A stretch of 36,812 bases of DNA from a virus, in IMG/VR virus record IMGVR_UViG_3300030106_001714, positions 1 through 36,812 of that record. The stretch is one strand, 5' to 3'. The translations under genes and the position numbers were made by a program. Of the stretch, positions 19,953-36,812 are shown one piece after another. The notes below the pieces were generated by a model. That model did not search any database, was not told the origin of the DNA, and saw nothing but the letters and a program-made list of their open reading frames with translations. Within the stretch, counting starts at the first letter, position 1; each line of letters begins with the position of its first letter.

Positions 19953-20311
19953 TATCCGCTCAGTGGGTTACTATCTTTTTTTTCTAGTTTTGTTTCAAGT
20001 TTTTGTAAATCACTGTCTAGGCTTTCAAGATCAGCTTTTATTGTTGCTATGTCTGTTTTAATTTCTGTAACGTCTGGTATTGAAATGTTATCTACTTCTT
20101 TTTCTAAGAATTGAACAGAGGTTTCTATTGATGCAAACCTTTCTTCTATTGCTTGGACGTTATCTTCTGCCTCGCTGATACCACCAATTTTAGCCTCTAG
20201 GTTTTCTAACCTATTGACATACTCGGCTCCTTGATAACCAAAGCCAGCCAGGGTGCCAACAATTCCAACAAGAGCAATTAATTGTGTTGTTTTGTTTTGA
20301 AACCAGTCCAT
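19952..20311 (-). CDS. Membrane-anchored coiled-coil protein of the lysis block
   Basis: A 119-residue protein starting at the ATG at 20311 (GGAGATAAG eight bases upstream); an upstream start at 20344 would overlap the previous gene. Residues 8-28 form a transmembrane segment (TQLIALVGIVGTLAGFGYQG). From residue 30 to 110 there is a coiled coil with regular Ile/Leu/Val spacing (FASIETSVQFLEKEVDNI, TIKADLESLDSDLQKLETKL). One membrane helix plus coiled coil could be a pinholin- or spanin-like factor. It overlaps the lipoprotein gene by one base. Confidence 0.55.
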   Translation of the reverse strand: MDWFQNKTTQLIALVGIVGTLAGFGYQGAEYVNRLENLEAKIGGISEAEDNVQAIEERFASIETSVQFLEKEVDNISIPDVTEIKTDIATIKADLESLDSDLQKLETKLEKKDSNPLSG

Positions 20312-20315
20312 AAAC

Positions 20316-23659: not shown

Positions 23660-24074
23660 CGGGTATGTAAACTCCTAATTCAATCAACTTTTCACGGTTA
23701 ATTAAATGTTCTGCCTCTACATCATCTTTGCTTTGACCGTAATATTTAACTGCTAAATATTTTTCAATCATAGCGACATTGATGTTGATGTCATCTACCA
23801 CTACCTCACCTAAAACTCTACCATACTTTCCCTTAGAATCTTTTAATTTTGAACGCAAAACTATGTTTTTTCCGTTATCTATAGATTCTTTGAGAAACTT
23901 TGCGGCTAATTTACCTCTAATTTTTTCGTCTTTATCTCTGGTTCTACTTTCGGGAGTATCAATGCCATAGAGTCTGACTCTGCATTTATGTAGGACAGAA
24001 AAGCCAAGGTCTAGTATGCAATCAATCGTGTCGCCATCTACCACGCGTGTAACCTGGCAACTGTATTCGTACAT
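23634..24074 (-). CDS. Thermonuclease-like protein (staphylococcal nuclease fold)
   Basis: A 146-residue protein with the SNase-fold and its active-site residues in place: D15 in VVDGDTIDC, R34 and D39-T40-E42 in RVRLYGIDTPES, and R86 in GKYGRVLGEV. The spacing matches staphylococcal nuclease (D21, R35, D40, E43, R87). Such enzymes cut DNA or RNA with calcium. No signal peptide is visible, so it would act in the cytoplasm unless exported otherwise. It lies between holin-like genes and exported proteins. Possible roles are host DNA or RNA breakdown for nucleotides or release of DNA at lysis. Length is typical of the domain alone. Confidence 0.85.
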   Translation of the reverse strand: MYEYSCQVTRVVDGDTIDCILDLGFSVLHKCRVRLYGIDTPESRTRDKDEKIRGKLAAKFLKESIDNGKNIVLRSKLKDSKGKYGRVLGEVVVDDININVAMIEKYLAVKYYGQSKDDVEAEHLINREKLIELGVYIPDEKKTGSN

Positions 24075-24454
24075 TAATCTTCGCCTTTAAAACCTTTAGA
24101 CGAATTTGAGGTCCCAGCATATAAACCAAACCATGCCGCCCCAGCACCAACTATTATTGATATAAGTCCAGATTGCTCTAGGCTAGGATCCTCTAAGGCC
24201 ATAAACCACATGGTTGAATAATAAAGTAAAAAAATGTAAACGCTTAAAAAAACCCTGGGGAATATGCGCCAGGAATCAACCGCTCTAGCTAAATGAATCC
24301 ATTTTTGATGTGGATTAACTTTGGAGTCAGATTCTAAATCTCTAATTTTGTCTTTGAGATCTGAAATCTCTTGAATCATGGCCATGAATTTATTGAGATC
24401 CATTTCGACCTCATTTCGATCCATGTCACCGCTAAATCTGTTTTGATCGTTCAT
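24074..24454 (-). CDS. Holin-like membrane protein
   Basis: A 126-residue protein with a charged N-terminal coiled region (residues 15-45), then two membrane segments: about 66-86 (RVFLSVYIFLLYYSTMWFMA) and 95-113 (GLISIIVGAGAAWFGLYAGT), and a short charged tail. I recall a family of marine phage proteins with this GLISxxVGAGAAWFGLYAGT segment beside lysis genes. Position next to XhlA-like and small membrane proteins supports a holin or antiholin. It overlaps its upstream neighbour by four bases. Confidence 0.6.
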   Translation of the reverse strand: MNDQNRFSGDMDRNEVEMDLNKFMAMIQEISDLKDKIRDLESDSKVNPHQKWIHLARAVDSWRIFPRVFLSVYIFLLYYSTMWFMALEDPSLEQSGLISIIVGAGAAWFGLYAGTSNSSKGFKGED

Positions 24455-24633
24455 ATAAATTTAGCTAATACTACGCTTATTACGATGAAAGGGTATACAC
24501 CCCATATCATGTTTTCCAATTTATCAAACCTTTTAGAGCCTGCCTCAAGCCGTTTATCTATGCTTTTATATAGTGCTCTGCACTCTCGTTCATGCGATTC
24601 TATAGCATTTAACGCGTCCTTTACAGATGCCAT
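24451..24633 (-). CDS. XhlA-like small membrane protein
   Basis: A 60-residue protein with an amphipathic, charged N-terminal helix (residues 1-42, SIDKRLEAGSKRFDKLENMI) and a C-terminal membrane helix (WGVYPFIVISVVLAKFI). This layout is that of haemolysin XhlA-type proteins that work with holins in phage lysis. It is coupled by an ATGA overlap to the holin-like gene that follows. Function as a holin regulator is inferred. Confidence 0.6.
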   Translation of the reverse strand: MASVKDALNAIESHERECRALYKSIDKRLEAGSKRFDKLENMIWGVYPFIVISVVLAKFI

Positions 24634-24798
24634 TTATTTTGCCTTTTTAGTTTTTTTGACTCTTTTAGTTGTGTAGGCCTCATTTACGTCTGGTGTAGAT
24701 TCATCGTCTGCAACGTATCTACCTTTTTTATTTCTGGATCTAACCTGTATTTCTTCCGTACCTGTAAAAAAATCCACTACCTTAGTCCACCAGCTCAT
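24634..24798 (-). CDS. Small basic protein in the lysis block
   Basis: A 54-residue protein from the ATG at 24798, with AAAGGAGAAATAGT upstream. It reads MSWWTKVVDFFTGTEEIQVR, RSRNKKGRYVADDESTPDV-like centre and ends TKRVKKTKKAK. The N-terminus is amphipathic and aromatic, possibly membrane-associated, and the tail is Lys-rich. It ends directly before the XhlA-like start. No family is certain. Confidence 0.55.
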   Translation of the reverse strand: MSWWTKVVDFFTGTEEIQVRSRNKKGRYVADDESTPDVNEAYTTKRVKKTKKAK

Positions 24799-24799
24799 A

Positions 24800-24964
24800 C
24801 TATTTCTCCTTTGCGCGACCTATGTTTAAAGCGGCCCAATCCACCAATTTATAGAGTTTACCAATCCAGGCGTCATCCTTTGGTGTGGGCGTTGAGGCGG
24901 CAATCAATGAGGCCACGGTTACTATGATTGTCACCCATGTCACTAAATTTACTATCATTTCCAT
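24800..24964 (-). CDS. Single-span small membrane protein, holin-like
   Basis: A 54-residue protein from the ATG at 24964 with TAGGAG upstream. It has one N-terminal membrane helix (MIVNLVTWVTIIVTVASLIA) followed by ASTPTPKDDAWIGKLYKLVD and WAALNIGRAKEK. The block TPTPKDDxxxxKxYKxxDWxALNIG is one I recall from small marine phage proteins near lysis genes. It may be a holin or a lysis regulator. Confidence 0.6.
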   Translation of the reverse strand: MEMIVNLVTWVTIIVTVASLIAASTPTPKDDAWIGKLYKLVDWAALNIGRAKEK

Positions 24965-24979
24965 TTTTTACTCCTAGTT

Positions 24980-25546
24980 TTAACTTGGTTTTGTAGGCCA
25001 CTCCCCAAGAGGCCTTGTTGGTGGGGTTTGATCGTTGTAAACATACAATGCCGCTAACGCGTCGACATCGCCTACGGCATCTATTTTGGTTATCATATCG
25101 TTAGCAGTCGTTCTAACTGCGGCCCTGTAAGTGGCCCAGTCGCTTGCAACAGAACCGCCTGTTTCTTGTGCTTTAATTACCATCCAATCGTTAGGTTGTA
25201 AGTAAGCATAAGCCTGTTTGTCAACGGTTTCTTTATGTAAGGTTTTAAGTCCTTTTACTAAGTCTGCTCCAGACCCAGTGTCGTTTAAAGGTTTTGCTGT
25301 AGCCGTGCCGTAACTGGCTGTAACTGTTCCACTCGAAAACGAAAAACTTTGTTCTGTATTTATGTAATATTCGCTATCTTTTTTATTAGTATCGTCTTGC
25401 ACGACTTCATAGATACCTATGGCTTGCAATTCAGATACGCTCCATAATGAAAATATGTTACGAGGATATTGAACATCGCCAATGGTCATAGATTTAGGTT
25501 GATTGATAACCTCGCTTACTTTATTTGATTTTACTAATGCCCACAT
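24980..25546 (-). CDS. Tail-fibre-associated protein, assembly factor-like
   Basis: A 188-residue protein opening MWALVKSNKVSEVINQPKSM, with DVQYPRNIFSLWSVSELQAI and a later segment with VKGLKTLHKETVDKQAYAYL, DWMVIKAQETGGSVASDWAT and YRAAVRTTANDMITKIDAVG. I recall this layout from proteins encoded immediately after tail-fibre genes in marine phages. The helical C-terminal half resembles tail-fibre assembly or DUF4376-type proteins. It follows the 357-aa adhesion protein by 19 bases. Role inferred from position. Confidence 0.55.
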   Translation of the reverse strand: MWALVKSNKVSEVINQPKSMTIGDVQYPRNIFSLWSVSELQAIGIYEVVQDDTNKKDSEYYINTEQSFSFSSGTVTASYGTATAKPLNDTGSGADLVKGLKTLHKETVDKQAYAYLQPNDWMVIKAQETGGSVASDWATYRAAVRTTANDMITKIDAVGDVDALAALYVYNDQTPPTRPLGEWPTKPS

Positions 25547-25565
25547 AATTAATTCCTATAATATA

Positions 25566-26639
25566 CTATTGTGCCGTTAATGGCACTCCGCCACTACTCA
25601 CTGTTGGTTTTTCTGCTATCGCCCAATAAATTAAATCACCGTTTAATTCACTGTCATTAGACCTCATTTTTACTCCATTACTTAAAAAATCTACATATAT
25701 ATCGTTAGCTCCACCAGTTGCAGAGCTTTCACCAGTTTGAGTATGTAATCTCAAAAATGGTTGTGCACCACCATTTTGTGTTTTTCTTTTACTGTCTATT
25801 AAAAAAGTACCATTGCCTGTTGTGTCGTATCTTCTAAACATAAACCATCTTGGTTTAAATCCTAAATATATAAAAGTGCCATCGTCGGCTTGATTATTGC
25901 CATGAGTTAAGCCTGCTCTTTGATAGCCTTGTTCATTACCAAAATGATATGCGGCATAAGATTTAGTACCATTTGGTCTAAAAACAGCACTTACATCTTT
26001 ACAATTAACGACCGAGGCAGTGGGCGCGGCATCAAAAAAAGTAGTGCCATAAGGGCCACCTGTGCTCATTTGTAAGGCGTTATCAAATCCTAACTTATTG
26101 TGTAAAAGTGTTAAAGGTGCATTACTACCAACTGTTTTAGATTTAATCATTGTAAATGCAGGTATTTCACCCAAACCATGTGAATACGAGCCAAAGCTAG
26201 ATGAACCTTGATACTCTGAAATAGTAATGTTTGCGGCTAAATTCTTTTGTACGGTTGATTCAGAGGGGTCAAAACTGGTTGAGCCTGCCGCTATCGTTTC
26301 CGTCGTGCCGCCGTTAATTTTCCAACACCAAGCAACATAAGTGTCGGAATTAGTATTGAATGATGCGTCTGCACCTAAACTAAAGCCATCGCTATCAAAA
26401 GCAGTAACACCTGTAGAAGAGCTTTGTTCTACAAACTCCCAATTTGATTCGCATTTAAAGTGTTTACCAGTTCCTCTGCTTGAATCTGTTATAACGTGTT
26501 CTCCTGTTGCATTTCTACTTTTAATCCAAATCATATCGGGTTGAAAGCCAACACCTGTGATTGATTGAGTCGAGCCGTTGCCCGTATAAGTTACCACGTT
26601 GAAATAAATGCTTGGATCGTCTACTGTTGTATAAGCCAT
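25566..26639 (-). CDS. Tail fibre / adhesion protein, DUF7483-like
   Basis: A 357-residue Gly/Ser/Thr-rich beta protein. The pattern VVTYTGNGSTQSITGVGFQP, DMIWIKSRNATGEHVITDSS and DSDGFSLGADASFNTNSDTY, VAWCWKINGG is a repeat-like domain I know from phage tail-fibre regions (DUF7483-type). A second similar unit follows from about residue 140 to the end. It is likely displayed on the virion for receptor binding. It follows the LamG+SPRY gene and precedes the assembly-like gene. Confidence 0.65.
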   Translation of the reverse strand: MAYTTVDDPSIYFNVVTYTGNGSTQSITGVGFQPDMIWIKSRNATGEHVITDSSRGTGKHFKCESNWEFVEQSSSTGVTAFDSDGFSLGADASFNTNSDTYVAWCWKINGGTTETIAAGSTSFDPSESTVQKNLAANITISEYQGSSSFGSYSHGLGEIPAFTMIKSKTVGSNAPLTLLHNKLGFDNALQMSTGGPYGTTFFDAAPTASVVNCKDVSAVFRPNGTKSYAAYHFGNEQGYQRAGLTHGNNQADDGTFIYLGFKPRWFMFRRYDTTGNGTFLIDSKRKTQNGGAQPFLRLHTQTGESSATGGANDIYVDFLSNGVKMRSNDSELNGDLIYWAIAEKPTVSSGGVPLTAQ

Positions 26640-26645
26640 AATTAA

Positions 26646-28049
26646 TTATCCGTATTCTGCCAAATTTTTCGAGCAGAGAGCAAAATAATTTACACCACTT
26701 AAAACTGGTGAATAAACAAATTTGCCTTGCCCGTCGGCATCACTAAAAGATCTGGTGTTGCTTATTAAAGTATAAGCACCAAAATTATATTGACCGCCAT
26801 CATTTTCGTGTTGCACATTACATGGAAAAATAAAATGTCCACTAAAGGCCGCGTTTAAACTTATGGGTTGAGATAATGAACCACTCAAAACTGAGCCATT
26901 TTTGGCCCAAGTTATTTCTTGGTCATCGGCGTTTAAAAATACACCAAATATGTCGTTGACAGCAGAGGTGCCAAAACCCGTAGATTCGTTAGATATTTGA
27001 GTGCCATCGATTCTTTGATAATAATGAGTGCTTGCGCCTTGTAAAACAGCAGATTGGTCAAATAAAAATTGAGTGGAGGTAGCATCGTCACTTGTGTCTG
27101 GGAAGGTGCTCCATCCATGTCCACCTATTTCTGTATTATCTACTTTGTACTCGTAATACCATTTACCTCTTTGCACACCCATACTGCCATAGGCATTATT
27201 CCAATTACCGCCACCGCCTACGACTTTCATAGCACCGTCACTGATTGTTGGTTTATTGTCAGTGTGAACTAATATGTTGAAAGTGCAAAAGTTGTTCGTG
27301 CAAGTGTCAATAGTTTGGTTAGTAGCTCCTACGTTATTTAAGTTAAAATTATTACTGTTTCCACTAGAATCTAATCCTAAATTAGAGCTGTCCTCAAATT
27401 TTAAATGGAATCCTTCGCTACCGTGGCCTCCTGTATATTTTTTAGGTTTCCATATGTTGCTATCAGAATCAAATTCACCAAATTCTGTTTGTGCTACTTG
27501 ACTGCCATCTACATAATGAACTTCTGCAAAATAACCGTTAAAACCATAACCGCCCTCCACAAAGAAACCAAGTTGCATGGTGGTAGCGCTAAAATTACCT
27601 AAGGTTAAGTCAGCGTTCTGAGTGGGGTAGGTTTCAGTTGTAAAGCTAGTTTCTTGAACACCATTCCAATATATTTTTACTCTGTTAGAGGCTGTGCTTT
27701 GTGTTGTGTCAATTGCAACGACGAGGTTGTACCATGCGTTAGAATCCCGAAACAACCTATTTTCATTTTCAATTTCAAAATTGGAACTGCCATCTGTAAG
27801 TCTTAAAGCAAAATAATTAGGTTTAAATCTGAACCTAATATTACTGCCTTGTGAAATAAATATTTGATCGTCGTCTATTTCTGTTCTTTTGAGCCACAAG
27901 GAAATAGTCATAGTTCTTCTACTTCCGTCACTACCCGACGCAGGTCTTTGTAAATATTCTGTATCGTCGTCCTCTAGCTTTACAGAATTGTTGATGTCGA
28001 ATCCTGTAGGTACATTTCCTCTATTGATAGCTCTTTGTAAAGTTTCCAT
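26646..28049 (-). CDS. Tail fibre / receptor-binding protein with LamG-like and SPRY-like domains
   Basis: A 467-residue protein. Residues about 40-190 form a LamG/concanavalin-like domain (TMTISLWLKRTEIDDDQIFI, NAWYNLVVAIDTTQST, RVKIYWNGVQETSF, FNGYFAEVHYVDG). Residues about 270-445 resemble a SPRY domain (GKWYYEYKVDNTEIGGHGWS, DIFGVFLNADDQEITWAKNG). Both folds bind glycans or proteins and are common in marine phage adhesins. The ATG at 28049 overlaps the stop of a 22-codon gene (TAATGG) with AGAGGA upstream. Confidence 0.7.
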   Translation of the reverse strand: METLQRAINRGNVPTGFDINNSVKLEDDDTEYLQRPASGSDGSRRTMTISLWLKRTEIDDDQIFISQGSNIRFRFKPNYFALRLTDGSSNFEIENENRLFRDSNAWYNLVVAIDTTQSTASNRVKIYWNGVQETSFTTETYPTQNADLTLGNFSATTMQLGFFVEGGYGFNGYFAEVHYVDGSQVAQTEFGEFDSDSNIWKPKKYTGGHGSEGFHLKFEDSSNLGLDSSGNSNNFNLNNVGATNQTIDTCTNNFCTFNILVHTDNKPTISDGAMKVVGGGGNWNNAYGSMGVQRGKWYYEYKVDNTEIGGHGWSTFPDTSDDATSTQFLFDQSAVLQGASTHYYQRIDGTQISNESTGFGTSAVNDIFGVFLNADDQEITWAKNGSVLSGSLSQPISLNAAFSGHFIFPCNVQHENDGGQYNFGAYTLISNTRSFSDADGQGKFVYSPVLSGVNYFALCSKNLAEYG

Positions 28050-28117
28050 TAAGAGTCCTCTGGGTTAGGCAGTATCATTCCCAATAATATCCAACAAGCC
28101 ACAATTATTTCCAACAT
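28049..28117 (-). CDS. 22-residue hydrophobic micro-protein between two fibre genes
   Basis: A 23-codon frame joined to the genes on both sides by TAATG overlaps: its ATG overlaps the stop of the 519-aa fibre gene and its TAA overlaps the start of the LamG+SPRY gene. The product begins MLEIIVACWILLGMIL and ends PNPEDS, so it is one short hydrophobic helix with an acidic tail. Its ribosome site is weak. It may be a real membrane peptide or chiefly a device to couple translation of the two fibre genes. Confidence 0.45.
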   Translation of the reverse strand: MLEIIVACWILLGMILPNPEDS

Positions 28118-29676
28118 TAGCTCTGCGATAAATTTTGACTTAGACCTACTGATTGCCACTTGGTCCCATTATAGCGAAAACTGTAAATATCGGTTTTGGC
28201 ATCTGTGGCTGTTTGCGTCGGAGTTTCTTCGCCTGGAAACTCAAATACAGCGTTCCATGCCAAAGTGTATGGGCCCGATGATGCGTGCTGGGCCACTTCT
28301 ATTTGTATAATTGCACCCTCTACGGAGTTGCTAGGGCTCGATATAGTAGAGTTTTCTTCTAGTAATAAAAAGGCATTTGCGGCCGCCCTGGCATCCCAAG
28401 ACACCGTGCCGTCGGTTAGTGCAACCTGTTTAATATTAGCAGAGGTTTCAGCTGTCACCACTTGGTTTTCATCAATGCTAAGAGCAACACTGGAACCGAC
28501 AGTGCTACCAACACCAACGAGTAAATCATCGGCGCTATCGTCTAAAGCAACATAAAAGTCTTGCGCGTTGCCGTCGAAAACTATTGATGTGTCAACAGCG
28601 GCGCCGTCACCTAAAGTCACAGTATCATCTGTAATCGTGAGAATATTGTTTGTCCCTACGGTTGAGCCTTCACCGATAACTAGCTTATCAGCTGAGTCAT
28701 CTAGAGCTACATAAAAGTCTTTTGCGTTACCGTCAAATACTAAAGCTGTATCTGCGGCCGCGCCGTCGCCTAATGTGACTGTATCGTCGGTGATAGTAAG
28801 TATGTTGTTGGTGCCGACAGTTGACCCTTCACCAATAACCAATTTATCGGCTGAGTCATCGTTAGCAATATAGAAATCTTTTACGCCGTTAAACTTAATA
28901 GCTACATCTTCTTCGCCACCGTCACCTAAAGTAAGTGTAGGTGTTGTGCCTAATAAAGACATGGTTTGCGCGGCAATATCACCTGTGGTTGATGATGCCG
29001 CTTGACCAACACCTATGGATTGAGCAAATTTAATATCTTGGTTTTCATCAATTTCAATAGCAGGCGTTGTTCCTACTGCTGAACCAAGACCGATAACTAA
29101 ATCATCCGCTGAGTCGTCCAAACCCATGTAGAAATCTTGAGCATTACCGTCAAACACGATTTTAGTATCTTCTGCTCCAGCGTCACCAATTGTTAGAGTC
29201 GGTGTAGAGCCAGATATGGTTACTGAATCCGTTAAGTTCAAATCTGTTAAGGCCTCGACCATCGCACCGCCAGACCCAGCGCCGTCTGAGTAAATTGCTT
29301 TAACGTGGCTGTTTGGTACGGTTACGGTTGCGCCAGTGCCTTGTTTGATAATAATGTTGTAGGGTCCAGAAGAACCGCTATCTGTTGTTGCGTTTTCAAT
29401 GAACCAAAGTTTCGATACAGTGTTTGGGCCTATTGTAATCGTGCAATCGGAATCTAATGCCCCTGTATATTTTAAAAATATAGACCTACCTGGGTCGGTA
29501 GAGCCGTCTGCTATGGTTGTGGTATGAGTGTTCGCATTTGTAGTTATGGCCTCGGTGCCAAAACTAAAAGCCTCCGCAATAAGTTCTAGGTTAGTATTGG
29601 TTTCAGAACCCCAGGTACCCGAGCTCTCACCTGTACCTATTTCTTTTAATCTTAAATCATTTACATAAGTTGCCAT
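28117..29676 (-). CDS. Tail fibre with four tandem repeat units
   Basis: A 519-residue fibre protein. The N-terminus (MATYVNDLRLKEIGTGESSG) is the virion-binding end seen in marine phage fibres. Repeats of about 50 residues start near 161, 249, 301 and 354, each of the form TLGDGxxxDTxIVFDGNAQD followed by FYxALDDSADxLVIGEGS. The third and fourth start 53 residues apart. The C-terminal 110 residues (TVSWDARAAANAFLLLEENS, then PYTLAWNAVFEFPGEE) form a non-repeated tip. The repeats suggest a trimeric beta shaft. It is the first large adhesin after the 183-aa protein. Confidence 0.75.
   Translation of the reverse strand: MATYVNDLRLKEIGTGESSGTWGSETNTNLELIAEAFSFGTEAITTNANTHTTTIADGSTDPGRSIFLKYTGALDSDCTITIGPNTVSKLWFIENATTDSGSSGPYNIIIKQGTGATVTVPNSHVKAIYSDGAGSGGAMVEALTDLNLTDSVTISGSTPTLTIGDAGAEDTKIVFDGNAQDFYMGLDDSADDLVIGLGSAVGTTPAIEIDENQDIKFAQSIGVGQAASSTTGDIAAQTMSLLGTTPTLTLGDGGEEDVAIKFNGVKDFYIANDDSADKLVIGEGSTVGTNNILTITDDTVTLGDGAAADTALVFDGNAKDFYVALDDSADKLVIGEGSTVGTNNILTITDDTVTLGDGAAVDTSIVFDGNAQDFYVALDDSADDLLVGVGSTVGSSVALSIDENQVVTAETSANIKQVALTDGTVSWDARAAANAFLLLEENSTISSPSNSVEGAIIQIEVAQHASSGPYTLAWNAVFEFPGEETPTQTATDAKTDIYSFRYNGTKWQSVGLSQNLSQS
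28447..29202. repeat. Tandem coding repeats in the tail fibre gene
   Basis: Four units of roughly 150-160 bases (the first followed by a longer spacer) encode the TLGDG ... FDGNAQDFYVALDDSAD ... GEGSTVGT repeat. Units two and three are nearly identical in their last 25 residues, which favours unequal recombination. Confidence 0.7.
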
Positions 29677-29704
29677 GTTGGTCCTCTTTTAAATATTCTA
29701 AACG

Positions 29705-30256
29705 TTATGCCGCATCGCGGCCCGCGTCAATCTCAGTATAAGACGGAGTTTGACTTGTTGCAACGGCGGAATAGCCAGGAGATTGGTCCGTGTCTATTTC
29801 GCCATAAACTAAAATAAATCCTGTCGATGCAGTAAATTGCACCCCTGTCGGTGATACGTCTGCATTAGCTTGTGTGGTGACAGCTCCAATACCCGAGGCT
29901 ACCTGGAACCCAGTTAAATTTATAACCTCGTTTTCGTGGACTATGACAGAGCCAATAGCCGAGGTTGTGACCAAGGTTGTAACAGTCACGTTTGCCTTTG
30001 CGACTTGAGTGGTCGTGCCTAGGCCCGACGTTATTGCTAACGTTCCTAATGTTTGATTGGCTTTACCGCTTTGTGTGGTTGTTCCTTGGCCAGAAGTTAT
30101 GGCCAAAGTACCTACCGATACGTCGGCCGCGGCGGCTACGGTTACGGTTCCTAGGCCAGCTGTGATTGCTCCAACACTGGTAAGAGTTACAGGTAATGCG
30201 GTGCCCCAAGCACCTTCATCCCAGGTGCCTCTACCCCAACCGTTAATAATAGCCAT
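29705..30256 (-). CDS. Repeat-rich virion/fibre protein with WGRGTWDEGAWG start
   Basis: A 183-residue protein opening MAIINGWGRGTWDEGAWGTA. This Gly/Trp motif resembles GWGVGTWGAGAWG in the gp10-like protein at the left edge. The middle has four to five short beta repeats of the type VGTLAITSGQGTTTQSGKAN. The C-terminal part reads STGFILVYGEIDTDQSPGYS. It has no signal peptide. I recall similar proteins before the main fibre in marine phages. Likely a tail or fibre-base protein. Confidence 0.6.
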   Translation of the reverse strand: MAIINGWGRGTWDEGAWGTALPVTLTSVGAITAGLGTVTVAAAADVSVGTLAITSGQGTTTQSGKANQTLGTLAITSGLGTTTQVAKANVTVTTLVTTSAIGSVIVHENEVINLTGFQVASGIGAVTTQANADVSPTGVQFTASTGFILVYGEIDTDQSPGYSAVATSQTPSYTEIDAGRDAA

Positions 30257-30399
30257 TAGTTAGTCATTGAATCGCGCACTTCTTCAAGTTGCGATTTAAG
30301 TTGTGTTAGGTCAGACCTAACGGGTTCTGTCATAAAATCCAGGAGCAACATCGACTCGATTGTGGTTATGCACCAGATTACTTTTTCTAGGTCACTCAT
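30256..30399 (-). CDS. Small helical protein between zeta-like and fibre genes
   Basis: A 47-residue protein from the ATG at 30399, reading MSDLEKVIWCITTIESMLLL, then DFMTEPVRSDLTQLKSQLEE and VRDSMTN. Its stop overlaps the next ATG (TAATGG), and it starts two bases after the stop of the zeta-like gene. A short hydrophobic helix is followed by a charged coiled-coil helix. Coupled overlaps make it likely real. It would be worth testing as a partner of its neighbour. Function unknown. Confidence 0.55.
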   Translation of the reverse strand: MSDLEKVIWCITTIESMLLLDFMTEPVRSDLTQLKSQLEEVRDSMTN

Positions 30400-30401
30400 G
30401 G

Positions 30402-31715
30402 TTAGTCTACAAAGACTTCTATGAGTTTATCTTTTGGACGACTTTCGACACGATATTCTGGAAACTCGGTGTTTTTGCGTATTGCTCCGCCATAGTTTCT
30501 TCCTTTTCGTAATCGAATTGTAGTGTCTTGGAAGATGCCTGCGGTGTCCTCATAGACTTGTTTAGGCTCTCCAATCCCTGTGGTTGTGTCGATTTTTCCA
30601 TATCCATCTGCTATACCCTCCTCTCTAAGTTTGTTGTAAGTTATTTCTGGCTTACCTCTATAAGCATCCGCCGCATCGGTGTTTATGAGTCTGCCTTTTC
30701 TTAGGAATCTGTCATTCATGCGGACAAACGCCAAATCTGGATCTATGTCTGTCAATACTAGATTAACTTTATAGCCTTTGTTTTGCAATGTTTTGATTTC
30801 ATTCCTAATTTTGTCTATTTGGCCGCCCACCTTAGGTAAAACCAGGTTGTCGCCTCTTTGAATCGCAATATCTTTAACGGCTTCACTTAAAATTTTTGAC
30901 TCGCGGTGAACGGCATTTCCACCTATTCCTCTAGCAAACTCTGGCAACACTTTTTTTGCCTCGTCTGGGTCTACAATAGTTGCATTGTATTTAACTGCTA
31001 GTGGGTTTGCTATAGCGCTTTTACCAGCGGCAGGTGGGCCTATGTTGATAACTGCGACCTTAGTTTGATCTTTAGCGGCCCTGCCCATAACGTTAATGGG
31101 TATTGGTAAATTCATTTCCTTATAAGCTAATTTTCTTCCACCCTTATACAATTCTTCAATTCCTTCCTCGTAGCCTTTTAATGTTTTGCCTGGAAAATTA
31201 AACTGCCTGTTTGCAACAAATTCTTTAGATCCAAAATTAGGCATATCTACGGTCGGTGTTATTTCAGCCATTTCTTTTTCTGCTCTAATAATTGCTGGGT
31301 GGTTTCTAATCTGTTGGGTTTTTTGTTCTGCACTAAGTTTCGGGTCATCAATTATTTTTTTTAGGTCATTCTTGTCGGCTTTAGCTAATGATGACTCCGA
31401 CATAAAAGTTCTTTTAATCGCAGACTTACCGCCTGCTTTTAGTAAATCTCCAACCACTGGTATCAAACCTATCGCTGACAAAGCCGCTATGCCTGTGTTT
31501 GCAAAACCTGGGCCTAAACGACCTTGACTAAAATCTCTGTAAGCATCACGTCCATATTTGGTTGTTTCTGCCAAATCCACACCAAGACCAGCGGGAGTGA
31601 GGCCAACACCAATCTGTCCTAAAAGGGGGACGTTTTCTTCATAAGCAATGACACCTCTATCGAGGAGATCTTGTTGAGGTGCAAAAATATCTATGCTGTC
31701 GACTTCACTCGCCAT
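30402..31715 (-). CDS. Zeta-toxin-like P-loop kinase fused to an N-terminal virion-like region
   Basis: A 437-residue protein. Residues 218-380 follow the zeta toxin/UNAG-kinase pattern: Walker A KVAVINIGPPAAGKSAIANP (GPPAAGKS at 226-233), VDPDEAKKVLPEF (Asp 249 and 251), HRESKILSEAV, VNLVLTDIDPDLAFVRMNDR with Arg 332 and 336, and a final GYGKID. Zeta toxins phosphorylate UDP-GlcNAc or related substrates. The N-terminal 200 residues are unlike classical zeta proteins and contain a Gly/Ala-rich hydrophobic stretch (IAALSAIGLIPVVGDLLKAG) seen in some pre-toxin or virion internal proteins. No epsilon-like antitoxin gene precedes it. Its place at the head of the fibre region suggests a virion-linked or late effector kinase. 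Confidence 0.6.
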   Translation of the reverse strand: MASEVDSIDIFAPQQDLLDRGVIAYEENVPLLGQIGVGLTPAGLGVDLAETTKYGRDAYRDFSQGRLGPGFANTGIAALSAIGLIPVVGDLLKAGGKSAIKRTFMSESSLAKADKNDLKKIIDDPKLSAEQKTQQIRNHPAIIRAEKEMAEITPTVDMPNFGSKEFVANRQFNFPGKTLKGYEEGIEELYKGGRKLAYKEMNLPIPINVMGRAAKDQTKVAVINIGPPAAGKSAIANPLAVKYNATIVDPDEAKKVLPEFARGIGGNAVHRESKILSEAVKDIAIQRGDNLVLPKVGGQIDKIRNEIKTLQNKGYKVNLVLTDIDPDLAFVRMNDRFLRKGRLINTDAADAYRGKPEITYNKLREEGIADGYGKIDTTTGIGEPKQVYEDTAGIFQDTTIRLRKGRNYGGAIRKNTEFPEYRVESRPKDKLIEVFVD

Positions 31716-31752
31716 AGCATAAATTATATGCCCTAGATTTAGATTTTGCTAA

Positions 31753-32544
31753 TCAACTGGCCTGGTTTAATCCCTGGAACTTTCTGTTTAGGATTTTGTG
31801 GACTTTGTGGTAGGGAAAGTCCTCATAGCCTTTGTGTAAATTTTGCACCTGTTTGGCAATCCTTCTAGCACCTAGGCCACGCTTTTTGCAGGCGTAAATC
31901 GTTTTTAGAACCTCTTGCTCTTCGGGTATGGGAACCAATTTAGTATGACGTTTGGCTCCGTGGTCTTCGTATTCTTTTTTGTAACCAAAAGGAACATGGC
32001 CGCCGATTGAATAACCTTTCTCGGCCCAGGCAATCTTACCAGCTGATAATCTGGACTTAATCATGTCGCGCTCAAACTCTGCAAACTGGGCCAGAGTTGC
32101 CACCAGGTTACGGTTGTTAATTCTGGCCATATCTAGTTTAGCCTCTAGGCCTGTGGATTCCTGGTCCTTCGGTAAGACCACGGGGATGTCACCAAACATT
32201 TCACAAAAGTAAAGCGTGATACCCGTCTCTTCTAGCATGGGTATCATGTTGACCATTTCAACAAAAGACCTGGCCAGCCTGTCTAGTTTGGTGGTAACTA
32301 TCACGTCATGCCTATCCATGATGTCAGTTAAATCTCTGGAACCTGGTCGATCGACTAAGTCCTTCATACCACTAACGCCAGCGTCAATAAAGAATTTATC
32401 AACGGGCCTATTAAACTTAGCCTGGACAAATTCTTCAATGGTTCTTTTTTGCTCGTCCAGAGACGAGCCGTCTTTGACTTGTTGCTCCGAAGAAACACGG
32501 ACATAGCCGTAAATGTTATTTATTTGTTTGCGCGGTTGTATCAT
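31753..32544 (-). CDS. Serine recombinase (resolvase/invertase family)
   Basis: A 263-residue protein starting at the ATG at 32544, which overlaps the upstream stop (ATGA) with GGGAGG five bases before; a TTG further up is less likely. The catalytic domain has the nucleophile Ser in YVRVSSEQQ (residue 18), DAGVSGMKD and the KLDRLARS motif, and RDMIKSRLSAGK of the long helix. The C-terminal part (SIGGHVPFGYKKEYEDHGAK, EQEVLKTIYACKKRGLGARR) is a recombinase-type DNA-binding segment, shorter than in large phage integrases. It could integrate or resolve the phage genome or invert a segment. No att site was identified. Confidence 0.8.
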   Translation of the reverse strand: MIQPRKQINNIYGYVRVSSEQQVKDGSSLDEQKRTIEEFVQAKFNRPVDKFFIDAGVSGMKDLVDRPGSRDLTDIMDRHDVIVTTKLDRLARSFVEMVNMIPMLEETGITLYFCEMFGDIPVVLPKDQESTGLEAKLDMARINNRNLVATLAQFAEFERDMIKSRLSAGKIAWAEKGYSIGGHVPFGYKKEYEDHGAKRHTKLVPIPEEQEVLKTIYACKKRGLGARRIAKQVQNLHKGYEDFPYHKVHKILNRKFQGLNQAS

Positions 32545-32744
32545 GCGGCCTCCCAAACGTTTTGACCGTTAATATTAACATTTACATTTTGTTTCCAAAG
32601 GCTAACGTGTGTTATCCACTGCTTTGGAACATCGTAAGTGTCCATGACTATTTGCTGGGCCTGGGTATCATTTGCGGCAAATATGAAAACCCTAGCAGGG
32701 TGAGCAAATTTATCGGAACGATATAAGATTCTGTATTTATTCAT
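32541..32744 (-). CDS. Small early protein in front of the recombinase gene
   Basis: A 67-residue protein starting at the ATG at 32744 with CCAGGAGGGG just upstream; an earlier start would consume the promoter leader. It reads MNKYRILYRSDKFAHPARVF, then AANDTQAQQIVMDTYDVPKQ, and ends NGQNVWEAA. The last codons GAG GCC GCA TGA carry the GGGAGG site and the overlapping ATG of the recombinase. It could be a small regulator, but no helix-turn-helix is evident. Confidence 0.6.
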   Translation of the reverse strand: MNKYRILYRSDKFAHPARVFIFAANDTQAQQIVMDTYDVPKQWITHVSLWKQNVNVNINGQNVWEAA

Positions 32745-32792
32745 AACCCCTCCTGGTTTGTTTTTGTTTTTAATTTCATTTCCCATATACCT

Positions 32793-32820
32793 ATGATAGC
32801 AAATAAGCACATAATTACAA
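32793..32820 (-). promoter_or_regulatory. Sigma70-like promoter B (leftward, recombinase side)
   Basis: On the minus strand TTGTAA (32815-32820) and TATCAT (32793-32798) are 16 bases apart. The spacer opens TTATGTGC, close to ATATGTGC in promoter A. The leader (TATGGGAAATGAAATTAAAA, then ACCAGGAGGGG) is related to those of promoters A and C. Confidence 0.6.
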
Positions 32821-32837
32821 GTCTTTATACAAAAAAA

Positions 32838-32853
32838 TATTTATTAATAAATA
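32838..32853. promoter_or_regulatory. 16-bp perfect palindrome in the divergent early region
   Basis: TATTTATTAATAAATA is a perfect palindrome. It lies between the two divergent promoters and abuts the -35 box of promoter C (32855). A repressor or other regulator acting on both sides would sit well here. AT-richness makes chance palindromes more common, so the call is moderate. Confidence 0.4.
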
Positions 32854-32854
32854 G

Positions 32855-32882
32855 TTGCATATTTGTGTAAAAAGTGCATAAT
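32855..32882 (+). promoter_or_regulatory. Sigma70-like promoter C (rightward, early genes)
   Basis: TTGCAT (32855-32860) and CATAAT (32877-32882) are 16 bases apart. The spacer has ATTTGTGT, similar to the ATGTGC of promoters A and B. The leader (ATGTGGAAAGTAAAAATAAC, then ACCTGGAGG) is related to the other two. It precedes the rightward run of genes from 32931. Confidence 0.55.
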
Positions 32883-32930
32883 AGATATGTGGAAAGTAAA
32901 AATAACAAAAAACCTGGAGGTAATAACGTT

Positions 32931-33275
32931 ATGGAATATGAAGTAATAAAAAAAGAACCTTGTGTCTTTGTCAATTTGACACGATATAAGACGCTTGCTG
33001 ACTACATGGCTGAAAAGGCCAAGGAAGGCAAACGTGTGGCCCTGGTTAATGATCCAGATGTTTTCGATTTCACTTTTGCGGTGACTGACTACGAGGGTGG
33101 ATATATCAAGTTGCGAGACGTTGGGATCTGCAAAGAGCAAGAGGGTCCTTACACTATCGACCTTACTAAAATGACCGATGCTGAGGTTGACGCGTTCAAC
33201 GAGGCCAACGGTATCAACAAGCAATCAGCCAAGTTAATTTATGGCAAATCTTATTTCGTCAAGGAGGCACTATGA
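32931..33275 (+). CDS. Early protein, paralogue-like to the cassette protein at 8437-8772
   Basis: A 114-residue protein starting at the ATG at 32931; a start at 32874 would lie in the promoter and leader. It reads MEYEVIKKEPCVFVNLTRYK, and contains EGKRVALVNDPDVFDFTFAV, TDYEGGYIKLRD and KMTDAEVDAFNEANGI. This order is shared with HGKRVAIYDG ... VAVVDFMRGYIPLTD and LTDEEVEALID of the protein at 8437-8772. Its ribosome site is TGGAGG. The end (AAG GAG GCA CTA TGA) carries the ribosome site for the next gene with an ATGA overlap. Function unknown. Confidence 0.6.
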   Translation: MEYEVIKKEPCVFVNLTRYKTLADYMAEKAKEGKRVALVNDPDVFDFTFAVTDYEGGYIKLRDVGICKEQEGPYTIDLTKMTDAEVDAFNEANGINKQSAKLIYGKSYFVKEAL

Positions 33276-33709
33276 GCACAAGAGCAGTATATACATTCAA
33301 AACACTTTCTGATTGGGACCAATCAGAGGTGCATGTTTATAAACACCATGACGGCTACCCCAAAGGTGGTCTCACATTCATTAAGGATGCGGTTGAATAT
33401 TATTATGATAATTACGAGACAATGAAAAATCTTGTAGATAGGGACGCTTTATTAACCTCTTTTCTTTTGTCAGTTAATAAAGGCGCAAAATATGTTAACT
33501 GTGATATTACAGAACACCACGACAAACATGGTGATTTGGAATATAGATACGAAATTACTCCACTAGAAGGATTCAGTGATGCCAGCTGTTTAACGAATAC
33601 AGGAATTAAAATTTATTCTTGTGCGTCTTGGGAAGGAGAAGAGAAAGTTATTTTTGACGGAGACCTTCATCAAGCCGTATCAAAATTTAAAACCTTGGAT
33701 GTGGCGTAA
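33272..33709 (+). CDS. Early accessory protein of the MSTRAVYTF..HHDGYP type
   Basis: A 145-residue protein opening MSTRAVYTFKTLSDWDQSEV, then HVYKHHDGYPKGGLTFIKDA and VEYYYDN. I recall this STRAxYTF ... YKHxDGYPxG layout from phage and plasmid proteins of unknown function. The gene at 9217-9636 has the related MGNRAVI ... HWNGG layout. It ends TLDVA in GTGGCGTAATGG, the same 12 bases as the cassette junctions, and so is coupled to the next gene. Confidence 0.65.
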   Translation: MSTRAVYTFKTLSDWDQSEVHVYKHHDGYPKGGLTFIKDAVEYYYDNYETMKNLVDRDALLTSFLLSVNKGAKYVNCDITEHHDKHGDLEYRYEITPLEGFSDASCLTNTGIKIYSCASWEGEEKVIFDGDLHQAVSKFKTLDVA

Positions 33710-35181
33710 TGGCCAGAGCAAAAAACGCTGAAAAACTATCAAGTGGGTTCTACAGGGCCCACGACTTTTTGCGCTTTGGTGACGTGATTGGCAGTATCAA
33801 TGCTGGCAAAAAAGGCGACTGGAGAAACCAAGCAACGCAAATGGCAAAACTACAATCTGTTAATAAACTTGGTTTTCCGTTTCCAGAAATATACCAAGAG
33901 GAGCAGGCCGAGGAGTCTTTAAGAGCTATTCATGGGTACGGAGTGTACTGTAATCAAGAGTATGATGCTTGGATTAACTCGCTTAAGTTCCAATTTGAAT
34001 CTGGTTTGTTACACAAAGTTATTCCACCAAAAGCAGTTTTAAATAATTTTTTTGCAGACCTTGAGGTTCGCATGCCGCATGAGCAAACTTTATTAATTGA
34101 AAATCATCCAGATGGGATAACTTTTTGTGTTCGAGTGGAGGAAACCACTATAAGGGCCTGGGTAAGAAAATATATGGACGTGGCTAAAATAACAGAAAGT
34201 TTAGATTACAAAAATGAAAAAGATTTTTGGGACCAGCTAGACTCTACGTTTAACACTCGTAATCCTGTAAATGAGGACGGCAAAATTACAAAAACATACG
34301 AATGGTACGAAGGTTTGGATCAAGAGGTTGCGGCTATAAGATTAACAATTAATTGTAACGTAAGCGAAAACAGTATTATTGCTCCAGAAACTTTTGACAA
34401 AGAGCAATTAGATGTTATGACAAGCAATCTAACTACGATGATACCGACAATTTATTTTGCGCCATTGGGTAAAACTGTTGGGTTTTATGACAGACAGCCT
34501 GCAATATTTTTTCACCATAATTTTATCGGTAATAACGTTGGACATAATGAATTAATAAAATCACACCATCATCTTGCTTGTGCGTTCACACAACCTTTTA
34601 CAACCCCAGGGTTTCCTGTTAGCAAAAGTTTGTTTCAAAAACTATTTCAAGGGTCTAATTTGAACAATCCATTTTTATTATATCCATGGGTTGAAAATGT
34701 AAGAAAAGTCAAACACCCCAACAATCGACACATCAATGGCGAGGATTTATCAGACGCACCGTTAGCACATTGGGAACTGGCCAGACAAGTTTTCTTACAC
34801 ATGGGTATTATGAATCACCCAGAGTTTAAAAGTCTTTGCGTAGAAAAACTCAAGATGAATGGTATTCAGCCAAAAAAATCGCCTTTTAGTGCGGCCAGGC
34901 CTTACAAAACAAGACCAGGCTGGAGGCCACCGTTTGAACACTATGTGGTGACAATCAATATTCCAGATGAGGTTAGCAACGAATCTAATGCAAGCACTCA
35001 CAAGAAAAGACACCACCTGGTTCGCGGCCATTATATGAGAACGGCCACCAAAGGTTTTGTCTGGAGAAAGTCTCACTGGCGCGGCAACAGGGAAATGGGT
35101 GTAGTGACTAAAGACTATGTCATGGACCTGGAAGAAGAATTACAAAAAACCGAGGATGTTATACATGAAAAAGCTGGCTGA
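33709..35181 (+). CDS. Large early protein with RGHYMR...VWRKSHWRG...DYV C-terminal motif, unknown function
   Basis: A 490-residue protein, the largest rightward gene. It is soluble, with no signal peptide. The only block I recognise is at the C-terminus: KKRHHLVRGHYMRTATKGFV, WRKSHWRGNREMGVV and TKDYVM. A comparable HHxRRGHxRR ... VWVRPHxxGDxxxGxVxxDY pattern occurs in phage and plasmid proteins of unknown role. The basic, His- and Arg-rich motif could bind nucleic acid. The middle part shows no recognised enzyme motif. It starts at a TAATGG overlap, and its end overlaps the next gene by 17 bases. Confidence 0.6.
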   Translation: MARAKNAEKLSSGFYRAHDFLRFGDVIGSINAGKKGDWRNQATQMAKLQSVNKLGFPFPEIYQEEQAEESLRAIHGYGVYCNQEYDAWINSLKFQFESGLLHKVIPPKAVLNNFFADLEVRMPHEQTLLIENHPDGITFCVRVEETTIRAWVRKYMDVAKITESLDYKNEKDFWDQLDSTFNTRNPVNEDGKITKTYEWYEGLDQEVAAIRLTINCNVSENSIIAPETFDKEQLDVMTSNLTTMIPTIYFAPLGKTVGFYDRQPAIFFHHNFIGNNVGHNELIKSHHHLACAFTQPFTTPGFPVSKSLFQKLFQGSNLNNPFLLYPWVENVRKVKHPNNRHINGEDLSDAPLAHWELARQVFLHMGIMNHPEFKSLCVEKLKMNGIQPKKSPFSAARPYKTRPGWRPPFEHYVVTINIPDEVSNESNASTHKKRHHLVRGHYMRTATKGFVWRKSHWRGNREMGVVTKDYVMDLEEELQKTEDVIHEKAG

Positions 35182-35374
35182 TACTGCTTACCTAGTTTTT
35201 ATGGACACGTTTACTAAATACCTGGAGAAAAAACACGATTTACCTTTTGACCAGATTGAGCTTAAAGACATAGACCCAGAGGATCTAATGACCTGGAGAG
35301 AAATCGAAAACATGCGCGGCGTTAAAATTGGATTTACAATTAAAGATAGGCCAGAAAAAAAGGTACTACACTAA
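35165..35374 (+). CDS. Small early protein, unknown function
   Basis: A 69-residue protein from the ATG at 35165 (MKKLADTAYLVFMDTFTKYL), with GAGGATG upstream. An earlier start at 35117 would overlap the upstream gene further. It contains EKKHDLPFDQIELKDIDPED and ends EKKVLH. It is acidic and probably helical. It overlaps the next ATG by one base (TAATG). No family recognised. Confidence 0.55.
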   Translation: MKKLADTAYLVFMDTFTKYLEKKHDLPFDQIELKDIDPEDLMTWREIENMRGVKIGFTIKDRPEKKVLH

Positions 35375-35607
35375 TGAATGATAAAGAAAAAGATACAGAG
35401 ATTAAACAGGTGGCCCAGCGTTTCAAAGTTATCTGCAACGAGCAGATTGAGGAAATTGAGGACCGCTTGCCAAAGGTTGTAGACCCACTGGAACGCGATA
35501 GCTTGCTCAAAAGAATTGATGCCCTGGAACAAATTGCAGACGAGGCAAACGCCAGGGCCGAAGAAATGATTAACGCTTATTACAAGAAAAAATACAGTTT
35601 AGATTAG
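35374..35607 (+). CDS. Small coiled-coil early protein
   Basis: A 77-residue charged helical protein. From residue 10 to 70 it shows heptad-like spacing (QVAQRFKVICNEQIEEIEDR, then DALEQIADEANARAEEMINA). It starts at a TAATG overlap with the preceding gene. A dimerising or regulatory function is possible. No family recognised. Confidence 0.55.
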   Translation: MNDKEKDTEIKQVAQRFKVICNEQIEEIEDRLPKVVDPLERDSLLKRIDALEQIADEANARAEEMINAYYKKKYSLD

Positions 35608-35617
35608 GGGGACAACT

Positions 35618-35758
35618 ATGATTGATATTTTACTGTGGGTCCTGGCACTGTTTGTGCTATGGAATGTTTCGAGTGTTGTGTTTCTTTATTCCAGGCGTTG
35701 GGTGGATAGAAATAAATACAACGAAGATATTATTAAATGTAGGTGGGGTAAAAAATGA
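35618..35758 (+). CDS. Small single-span membrane protein
   Basis: A 46-residue protein from the ATG at 35618, 10 bases after the previous stop, with GGGGGAC upstream. Residues 4-25 form a membrane helix (ILLWVLALFVLWNVSSVVFL) and a basic tail (SRRWVDRNKYNED) follows. Its stop overlaps the next ATG (ATGA). Confidence 0.55.
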   Translation: MIDILLWVLALFVLWNVSSVVFLYSRRWVDRNKYNEDIIKCRWGKK

Positions 35759-35892
35759 CAAATTTCGTTAAAGCTTTTTTATTGGTTTCTGCTCTATTAC
35801 TTGTTCTTTGCGGTTTTACTTTTTTAGCAATACATCAATTAATTATTTCAGATATGGAAATTGAAAAATTTATAAATCAAGTAAGGAGATAA
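35755..35892 (+). CDS. Small single-span membrane protein, second of a pair
   Basis: A 45-residue protein from the ATG at 35755 (ATGA overlap). Residues 4-30 form a membrane helix (VKAFLLVSALLLVLCGFTFL) with a Cys in a weak lipobox-like setting (LLVLC). The tail MEIEKFINQVRR is charged. Its last codons AAG GAG ATAA also carry the ribosome site of the next gene. Confidence 0.5.
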   Translation: MTNFVKAFLLVSALLLVLCGFTFLAIHQLIISDMEIEKFINQVRR

Positions 35893-35893
35893 A

Positions 35894-36100
35894 ATGGATA
35901 AATACTTTTGGACTTTAGATTTACTGTTTAGGTCTAACTGGCAGGACTGCAAACCTGGACAGCTTAGAAATATGATGAAAAAATATTTAAAACGCGATCA
36001 CGATGTGTTTGATGGCGCTGATTACATAATTGGTATTTACAAAACCGATTACGCGCATCAATATCAAGGTGACGCTTTGGAGGCATTAGACGCATTATGA
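35894..36100 (+). CDS. Small early protein, unknown function
   Basis: A 68-residue protein (MDKYFWTLDLLFRSNWQDCK, then PGQLRNMMKKYLKRDHDVFD) starting after AAGGAGATAA. It has an aromatic N-terminus and a helical middle. It ends in an ATGA overlap with the next gene. No family recognised. Confidence 0.5.
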   Translation: MDKYFWTLDLLFRSNWQDCKPGQLRNMMKKYLKRDHDVFDGADYIIGIYKTDYAHQYQGDALEALDAL

Positions 36101-36255
36101 GTGAAGTTTATACTGTGGAGGATGAAAAGTTTTACACCGTCCAGGTTGACGGTATCGAGGTTCCAGAACACCTTAGATATCTGCCAGCTGATACTATAAG
36201 GATGTTAAGACAGCTGTGGAATCACAGCTGGGGAATACCAGCTAAGACCGATTAG
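36097..36255 (+). CDS. Small early protein, unknown function
   Basis: A 52-residue protein from the ATG at 36097, overlapping the previous stop (ATGA). It reads MSEVYTVEDEKFYTVQVDGI, then EVPEHLRYLPADTIRMLRQL and WNHSWGIPAKTD. Charged and soluble. No family recognised. Confidence 0.5.
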   Translation: MSEVYTVEDEKFYTVQVDGIEVPEHLRYLPADTIRMLRQLWNHSWGIPAKTD

Positions 36256-36258
36256 TGA

Positions 36259-36606
36259 ATGGACCAGAATCAAAGTTCTCTCTGCAAGACTGTATATATG
36301 ATTCTGGTCTCATTCCTTGATTTAAAAAGCGTCAAGTCTTTAGAAGATTATTGGCTCTCAAATGTTGAGGCCATTGATATTATTAAAAACAATGATAAAG
36401 AGTTATACGAAAAACTAATATCTAAATTTAAGGAAAAGAAAGATGAGATTAACCTTATTGCTAACAGAAAGACAGAAGGCCTTGATGATAAGAGTGTTGA
36501 GCGATTACGCGACGCCCAAGCTAGACTCGAAAAACAAGGACGACAAAGACGAGGTGGCCGATATTCAGAACATCATCCAAATGCTCGCTTTTGGAAGAAA
36601 CCATGA
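36259..36606 (+). CDS. Early protein with basic tail, unknown function
   Basis: A 115-residue helical, charged protein (KSVKSLEDYWLSNVEAIDII, NDKELYEKLISKFKEKKDEI) with a basic C-terminus (LEKQGRQRRGGRYSEHHPNA, ending FWKKP). The ATG at 36259 follows the previous stop by three bases. The ribosome site is weak and a later start near 36298 cannot be excluded. Confidence 0.5.
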   Translation: MDQNQSSLCKTVYMILVSFLDLKSVKSLEDYWLSNVEAIDIIKNNDKELYEKLISKFKEKKDEINLIANRKTEGLDDKSVERLRDAQARLEKQGRQRRGGRYSEHHPNARFWKKP

Positions 36607-36782
36607 ATAAAAAAAGGCCCTACGAGGTGAAGGCCGTTTTATCAATAGACGATGCGCCGAACATAACGCAAGAAAAACTCTATGAAATATTTTTTGAGGC
36701 CCTTAAAAACAAAAAGTTAAATCATTTCGAGATTACTGGCGGTGGTTTTCGTAGCGCTCCAGATCACTGGAGAAAAGACTAA
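36603..36782 (+). CDS. Small early protein at the right edge
   Basis: A 59-residue protein from the ATG at 36603, overlapping the previous stop (ATGA) with GGAAGA upstream. A TTG at 36591 would add four residues. It reads MNKKRPYEVKAVLSIDDAPN, then ITQEKLYEIFFEALKNKKLN and ends SAPDHWRKD. Probable small alpha/beta protein. No family recognised. Confidence 0.5.
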   Translation: MNKKRPYEVKAVLSIDDAPNITQEKLYEIFFEALKNKKLNHFEITGGGFRSAPDHWRKD

Positions 36783-36812
36783 AGAGACCCGATTCCCTGG
36801 TCTTGGCTATCA

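What the first reader, a model, noticed from the sequence alone, without database searches (positions are those of the whole stretch)
30402..31715. Zeta-toxin-like kinase domain in a protein of the tail-fibre region
Seen: a Walker A (GPPAAGKS) and zeta-like motifs in residues 218-380, after a 200-residue N-terminal part with a hydrophobic Gly/Ala stretch; no epsilon-like antitoxin before it. Known: zeta/PezT toxins phosphorylate UDP-GlcNAc-type precursors of the cell wall. Inferred: it may be a late or virion-delivered effector that blocks wall synthesis or excludes competitors, or it may modify a virion or host factor. The 47-aa coiled protein downstream could be its partner.
Basis: partly seen in the sequence, partly recalled or inferred. 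Interest (0 to 1): 0.65.

Follow-up and report, generated by a model that had tools for sequence, protein, structure and literature searches.

The report
Swappable phage effector with zeta-type kinase
A marine bacterial virus carries a gene whose back half is a toxin-like kinase and whose front half is a shared module that, in close relatives, carries a different enzyme (an alarmone synthetase) or is missing altogether, which suggests a slot for interchangeable weapons that may be injected into the host cell.

Summary
The ORF (minus strand, 31715→30402, 437 aa) has a real, apparently active zeta-fold kinase at residues ~111-405: Pfam Zeta_toxin E 5e-16, zeta 1GVN Z 16.6, catalytic residues invariant in 48 aligned sequences. 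The interpretation changes in three ways. (1) Most contacts zeta uses to hold UDP-GlcNAc are gone; Thr118 is Val, a change that detoxifies PezT. The wall-precursor target is not supported. (2) The 47-aa gene is not a partner: a similar ORF precedes the next gene in 47 of 49 distinct loci, whatever the neighbour encodes. (3) Residues 1-106 are a separate module. At the same locus (serine recombinase → X → 47-aa → tail-fibre genes) in 49 marine viral loci, X is this module plus the kinase (11), the module plus a RelA/SpoT-type alarmone synthetase (21), nothing (15), a stub (1) or other genes (1). On the recombinase tree the content changes at least 12 times. Kinase relatives are fused to MuF, LPD38, ART and ddrB-ParB domains or sit next to DNA-ejection genes. 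Best reading: an exchangeable, probably virion-delivered effector, like MuF polymorphic toxins and polyvalent proteins but on a different N-terminal module and without an immunity gene. Substrate and delivery remain unproven.

The parts
30402..31715 (-). effector gene, 437 aa: N-terminal module plus zeta-fold kinase
31398..31715 (-). N-terminal module (residues 1-106): 'SIDIF' start, then 'YEENVPLLGQ' and a hydrophobic Gly/Ala stretch; shared with proteins that have other C-terminal domains; fold not resolved
30501..31385 (-). zeta-fold kinase domain (residues ~111-405)
31017..31040 (-). Walker A GPPAAGKS (226-233); K232 = zeta K46
30963..30965 (-). D251 = catalytic base (zeta D67, PezT D66); invariant
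   Evidence: PMC3062530
30825..30836 (-). P294-K-V-G297 in place of zeta E116-G-T118-G: substrate loop altered; V296 replaces T118
30690..30722 (-). R332, R336 (zeta R158), R342 (zeta R171); all invariant
31723..31752 (-). promoter-like TTAGCA-18-TATAAT between recombinase and effector start; TATAAT recurs just after the recombinase stop in 36 of 49 loci
31753..32556 (-). serine recombinase (Resolvase E 6e-27); constant upstream border of the locus
30256..30399 (-). 47-aa gene; constant downstream border, not kinase-specific
29705..30256 (-). 183-aa gene used as the downstream anchor; function unknown
28117..29676 (-). 519-aa protein with conserved first ~150 residues; probable tail fibre (inferred from the flanking lectin-like and DUF7483 genes)

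Best explanation
The gene encodes an exchangeable phage effector. A ~106-residue N-terminal module, shared across the locus, probably takes the protein into the virion or across the host membrane (inferred). The C-terminal zeta-fold kinase then uses ATP to phosphorylate a small nucleotide-like host metabolite (fold and catalytic residues shown; substrate inferred). That substrate is probably not UDP-GlcNAc, or not bound through zeta's contacts. The effect would be to change host physiology at infection or to disable host defences and rivals (inferred). The locus between the recombinase and the 47-aa gene is a slot whose content is repeatedly swapped between this kinase, RelA/SpoT-type alarmone synthetases and nothing (shown).
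For: Kinase. K232, D251, R336 and R342 are invariant in 48 sequences, as are family-specific K254, H270, S273, N290, Y315 and R332; dN/dS about 0.2 against a close relative. Substrate site: V in 45 of 48 at T118, P in 47 of 48 at E116, mostly non-basic at R120; T118V makes PezT nontoxic (PMC3062530). Swapping: the same N-module carries the kinase or RelA/SpoT-like domains. Alarmone synthetase fold by Foldseek (2BE3 E 7e-7, RelP, SAS1, Tas1). L122 shares 95/89/93% recombinase/183-aa/519-aa identity with the window but carries a RelA/SpoT effector. L135 has lost codons ~41 to stop. At least 12 changes on the recombinase tree. Delivery: relatives fused to MuF (L083), ART and LPD38 (L006), ddrB-ParB (L075); head-morphogenesis and portal-associated PHROG matches; L018, whose kinase region is 61% identical, directly follows two DNA-ejection-protein-like genes in its cluster.
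Against: No proteomics or activity data. The N-module has low pLDDT in both models and matches no known family, so delivery rests on context. The virion-linked relatives (MuF, LPD38, ejection neighbours) do not carry this N-module. The window gene lies by tail-fibre genes, not head or ejection genes. E278 (zeta E100, a ribose contact) is kept in the window protein, so some UDP-sugar binding cannot be excluded.
Confidence: 0.55

Rival explanations
1. Same protein, but made and acting inside the infected cell (late expression), for example to exclude competing phages or reprogramme metabolism, and never packaged.
For: It has its own promoter-like site just before its start codon; it lies beside tail-fibre genes rather than ejection genes.
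Against: Relatives of the kinase are repeatedly fused to or adjacent to virion or injected components. The hydrophobic N-module is kept across unrelated effector domains, as expected for a delivery module.
Confidence: 0.22
2. Lysogenic-conversion gene: the serine recombinase is an integrase and the effector is expressed from the prophage to protect the lysogen.
For: Always directly downstream of a serine recombinase; PHROG 'integrase' match; present/absent polymorphism typical of morons.
Against: The N-module was not seen in any kinase locus fetched from bacterial genomes, although no direct genome search with the N-module was made. The recombinase stays when the effector is absent. The virion core resembles HTVC023P-type phages. 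An antitoxin or immunity gene would be expected, and none is linked.
Confidence: 0.12
3. Classical zeta/PezT effector that phosphorylates UDP-GlcNAc and blocks peptidoglycan synthesis (first reader; also proposed for zeta-like kinases fused to MuF and in polyvalent proteins by Iyer et al. 2017).
For: Same fold and catalytic residues; E278 matches zeta E100.
Against: T118→V, R120→G, T121→Q, T128→E in the window protein. Same T→V in a virus of haloarchaea, whose walls lack murein (wall chemistry from general knowledge). No epsilon or PezA-type gene.
Confidence: 0.2
4. The kinase modifies a virion or tail-fibre protein during assembly.
For: Position in the tail-fibre run.
Against: Deleted or absent in 16 of 49 loci with the same fibre genes and swapped with alarmone synthetases, which act on nucleotides.
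Confidence: 0.03

Closest known systems
Zeta toxins / PezT (PF06414; 1GVN, 3Q8X, 2P5T)
   Same: Fold (Z 15-17), Walker A, catalytic Asp, two lid arginines
   Different: UDP-GlcNAc-contact residues replaced; family-specific N-terminal extension (T155, R170); no epsilon/PezA antitoxin; fused to an N-terminal module
Polyvalent proteins of phages and conjugative elements (Iyer et al. 2017, PMC5512222)
   Same: Zeta-like kinase, RelA/SpoT, ART, ParB domains in phage proteins near late genes; zeta-like kinase fused to MuF already reported there
   Different: This protein has two parts, not many; it sits in a dedicated swap slot; the N-module was not matched by Pfam, PHROGs or cultured phages
MuF polymorphic toxins, incl. 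Apk2 (Jamet et al. 2017, PMC5576092; Paulet et al. 2025, PMC12226406)
   Same: Constant N-terminal part plus variable C-terminal toxin, incl. RelA-like and ART domains, in phages
   Different: N-module is not MuF; no linked immunity gene; beside tail-fibre genes; the window phage has an HTVC023P-like virion core, lysogeny not shown
AvrRxo1 (zeta-fold type III effector; 4Z8T/4Z8U)
   Same: Zeta fold at Z 14.4; an injected effector kinase
   Different: Different host and delivery route; substrate of the phage kinase unknown
Tas1 and small alarmone synthetases (for the alternative C-terminus)
   Same: Foldseek E 7e-7 to 2e-5; conserved R..K..K, D..R, E and H positions
   Different: Sequence identity about 12-18%; nucleotide product unknown

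Membership tests
Zeta-fold kinases (PF06414 superfamily) | Significant profile and structure match | tested here: met
   E 5.2e-16; Z 16.6
Zeta-fold kinases (PF06414 superfamily) | Walker A Lys, catalytic Asp, two lid Arg | tested here: met
   K232, D251, R336, R342 invariant
Zeta/PezT UDP-GlcNAc kinase toxins | Residues that bind UDP-GlcNAc (E100, T118, R120, T121, T128) | tested here: not met
   Only E100 kept (E278); T118→V, R120→G, T121→Q, T128→E (PMC3062530)
Zeta/PezT UDP-GlcNAc kinase toxins | Cognate epsilon/PezA antitoxin gene | tested here: not met
   Upstream gene is a recombinase; the 47-aa gene is not kinase-linked
Zeta/PezT UDP-GlcNAc kinase toxins | Phosphorylates UDP-GlcNAc | not testable with these tools
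   needs an enzyme assay
Polymorphic toxins (general plan) | Constant N-terminal part with variable C-terminal toxin domains | tested here: met
   Same N-module with kinase or RelA/SpoT (+ART-like, +ParB-like)
Polymorphic toxins (general plan) | Cognate immunity gene next to the toxin | tested here: not met
   Only the constant 47-aa gene lies between effector and the 183-aa gene
MuF polymorphic toxins | MuF domain at the N-terminus | tested here: not met
   No Pfam or PHROG match in residues 1-106; a MuF fusion exists in relative L083
Polyvalent proteins | Domain vocabulary (zeta-like kinase, RelA/SpoT, ART, ParB) in late-gene context | tested here: met
Polyvalent proteins | Packaged in virion or transferred with DNA | not testable with these tools
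   needs proteomics or a transfer assay

The most novel reading that the evidence does not exclude
A phage effector-delivery module unrelated to MuF: a ~106-residue N-terminal domain that loads exchangeable enzymes (zeta-fold kinase, alarmone synthetase, ADP-ribosyltransferase-like) into marine phage virions, with no immunity genes because infection kills the host, and with the kinase acting on a host metabolite not previously known as a target of zeta-family enzymes.
Probability: 0.35. Interest if true: 0.78.

Novelty: new variant of a known kind. Interest (0 to 1): 0.62.

Why it matters
It shows a defined locus in marine phages where unrelated metabolite-modifying enzymes replace each other behind one constant module. 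That gives a natural experiment: phages with nearly identical flanks but different or no effectors. It also points to a zeta-fold kinase group, seen in viruses of bacteria and, more distantly, archaea, whose substrate is unlikely to be bound as zeta binds UDP-GlcNAc. Finding it would identify a host metabolite worth attacking at infection.

Tried and rejected
The 47-aa gene as antitoxin or partner: rejected, present in 47 of 49 loci regardless of content. An initial count of the 47-aa gene by phmmer undercounted it; direct inspection of the DNA before the 183-aa gene corrected this. N-module against cultured phages: no match; RelA/SpoT effector L124 against cultured phages: no match. The second structure job did not resolve the N-module. 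RelA/SpoT by sequence alone was weak (Pfam E 0.003, below cut-off; Tas1 E 0.023) and accepted only after the fold search. A shared late-promoter sequence in the window: TATAAT before the capsid-region gene (12034) has different flanks and a ribosome-binding site, so no common promoter is claimed. No Rfam match or tRNA. The one HTVC023P-type genome paper read mentions no zeta, recombinase, integrase or toxin. No structure-library match covers the N-module, but because it is poorly modelled this is inconclusive.

Full report
Observation. The span 30402-31715 encodes a 437-aa protein on the minus strand. Residues 215-366 match Pfam Zeta_toxin at E 5.2e-16, well above the cut-off. The window is itself a virus record. 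The left half, with terminase 59-63%, portal 49-51% and capsid 59-62% identical to Pelagibacter phage HTVC027P and phage 023Pt_psg01, marks an HTVC023P-like virion core; the right half, with this gene, has no homologue in either.

Kinase. Relatives were collected from viral contigs. These searches used motif patterns around DPDEAKK and GPPAAGK, so conservation of those motifs is partly by selection; the other invariant positions are not. In 49 aligned proteins the invariant residues include G226, G231, K232, S233, D249, D251, K254, G263, G265, H270, S273, N290, G297, Y315, R332, R336 and R342. The AlphaFold2 model is confident over the kinase and poor over residues 1-106. Foldseek and VIA-align rank zeta first (1GVN_B Z 16.6), then PezT and AvrRxo1, then polynucleotide kinases. 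A profile alignment to zeta 1GVN maps K46=K232, D67=D251, R158=R336, R171=R342. Against a 97% identical relative dN is 0.017 and dS 0.087 (a single pair).

Substrate. Mutschler et al. (PMC3062530) report UDP-GlcNAc contacts of zeta: T118, R120, T128, E100 and the catalytic base (PezT D66), with T121 nearby; T118V in PezT is nontoxic. In the window protein these are V296, G298, E306, E278, D251 and Q299. Across 48 sequences the T118 position is V 45, I 2, T 1; E116 is P in 47; R120 is mostly G, H, A or D; E100 is E in only 16. More distant viral relatives vary: DKV in Bacteroides phage DAC16 and halovirus HCTV-5, and a zeta-like DGTG in cyanophage PSS2. So catalysis is preserved, but the known acceptor contacts are not. 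This argues against UDP-GlcNAc bound in the zeta manner; it does not identify the substrate.

N-terminal module. A search with the first 113 residues found the same module in proteins without the kinase. Their C-terminal part matches RelA_SpoT weakly by sequence, but a model of L124 aligns to small alarmone synthetases and Tas1 (Foldseek E 7e-7 to 2e-5), with conserved residues in the expected order. Some carry a further ART-like domain (ART-PolyVal E 0.009 in L124, below that family's cut-off) or a ParB-like segment by inspection (L122).

The slot. Anchoring on the 183-aa gene downstream, which does not depend on the effector, gave 80 loci. By distinct flanks (loci found with the N-module are included) there are 49 loci with recombinase and 183-aa gene: kinase 11, RelA/SpoT 21, empty 15, stub 1, other 1. 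By contig: 13, 24, 15, 1, 1 of 54. In L122 the flanking proteins are 89-95% identical to the window's, but homology is lost inside the module and returns exactly at the 47-aa gene. In L135 the effector is cut from about codon 41 to its end. On a tree of 48 recombinases the content needs 12 changes, with starred branches alone forcing at least 6 for the kinase label; some recombinases almost identical in sequence carry different effectors (L205 kinase, L129/L188 RelA/SpoT).

The 47-aa gene. An ORF of this family ending at the 183-aa gene is present in 47 of 49 loci with every kind of content, including empty ones. It is part of the backbone.

Delivery. Kinase relatives occur fused to MuF (L083), ddrB-ParB (L075), and LPD38 plus ART-PolyVal (L006); L083 also matches head-morphogenesis families and L009 a portal-associated family. 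In L018 the kinase gene overlaps the end of a DNA-ejection-protein-like gene, and a second lies two genes further upstream. Iyer et al. [quoted passage not shown] The window's own N-module is helical, hydrophobic in its middle, and unresolved. Virion delivery is thus an inference from relatives and context.

Conclusion. The kinase is a known superfamily with an altered acceptor site. The arrangement, one constant N-module with unrelated nucleotide-acting enzymes exchanged in a fixed slot, resembles MuF polymorphic toxins in plan but fails the MuF and immunity-gene criteria. I file it as a new variant of a known kind.

Noticed in passing
L183:589-4837: In this contig the same slot holds other genes instead: two DNA-methylase-like proteins (437 and 624 aa) and a PAPS-reductase-like protein (305 aa); identified by eye only.
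   Followed up: no
L180:1206-2585: A 459-aa protein with a weak match to the N-module (E 5e-8, begins 'KDIDIF' after a short leader) lies upstream of the recombinase in a contig whose slot is empty; C-terminal part unknown.
   Followed up: no
L124:4989-6842 and other RelA/SpoT-type effectors: They share a C-terminal tail ending '...NPNDVDIFEVE', echoing the 'DIDIF' at the N-terminus; possible targeting or packaging motif.
   Followed up: no
window 24980-28049: Against L002 the DNA is 89% identical up to 27945, then the lectin-like and DUF7483 proteins fall to 39% and 31% identity: the fibre end is also exchanged.
   Followed up: partly
window 28117-29676: The 519-aa probable fibre protein contains several copies of a ~40-residue repeat (TLGDGAAxDTxxVFDGNAxDFYVALDDSAD).
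   Followed up: no
window 19000-36812: This half has no homologue in HTVC027P or 023Pt_psg01, while the other half does: the genome is a mosaic.
   Followed up: partly
window 31753-32556: The serine recombinase borders the slot in nearly all loci; its target sites and role are unknown, and whether it drives the swapping was not tested.
   Followed up: no
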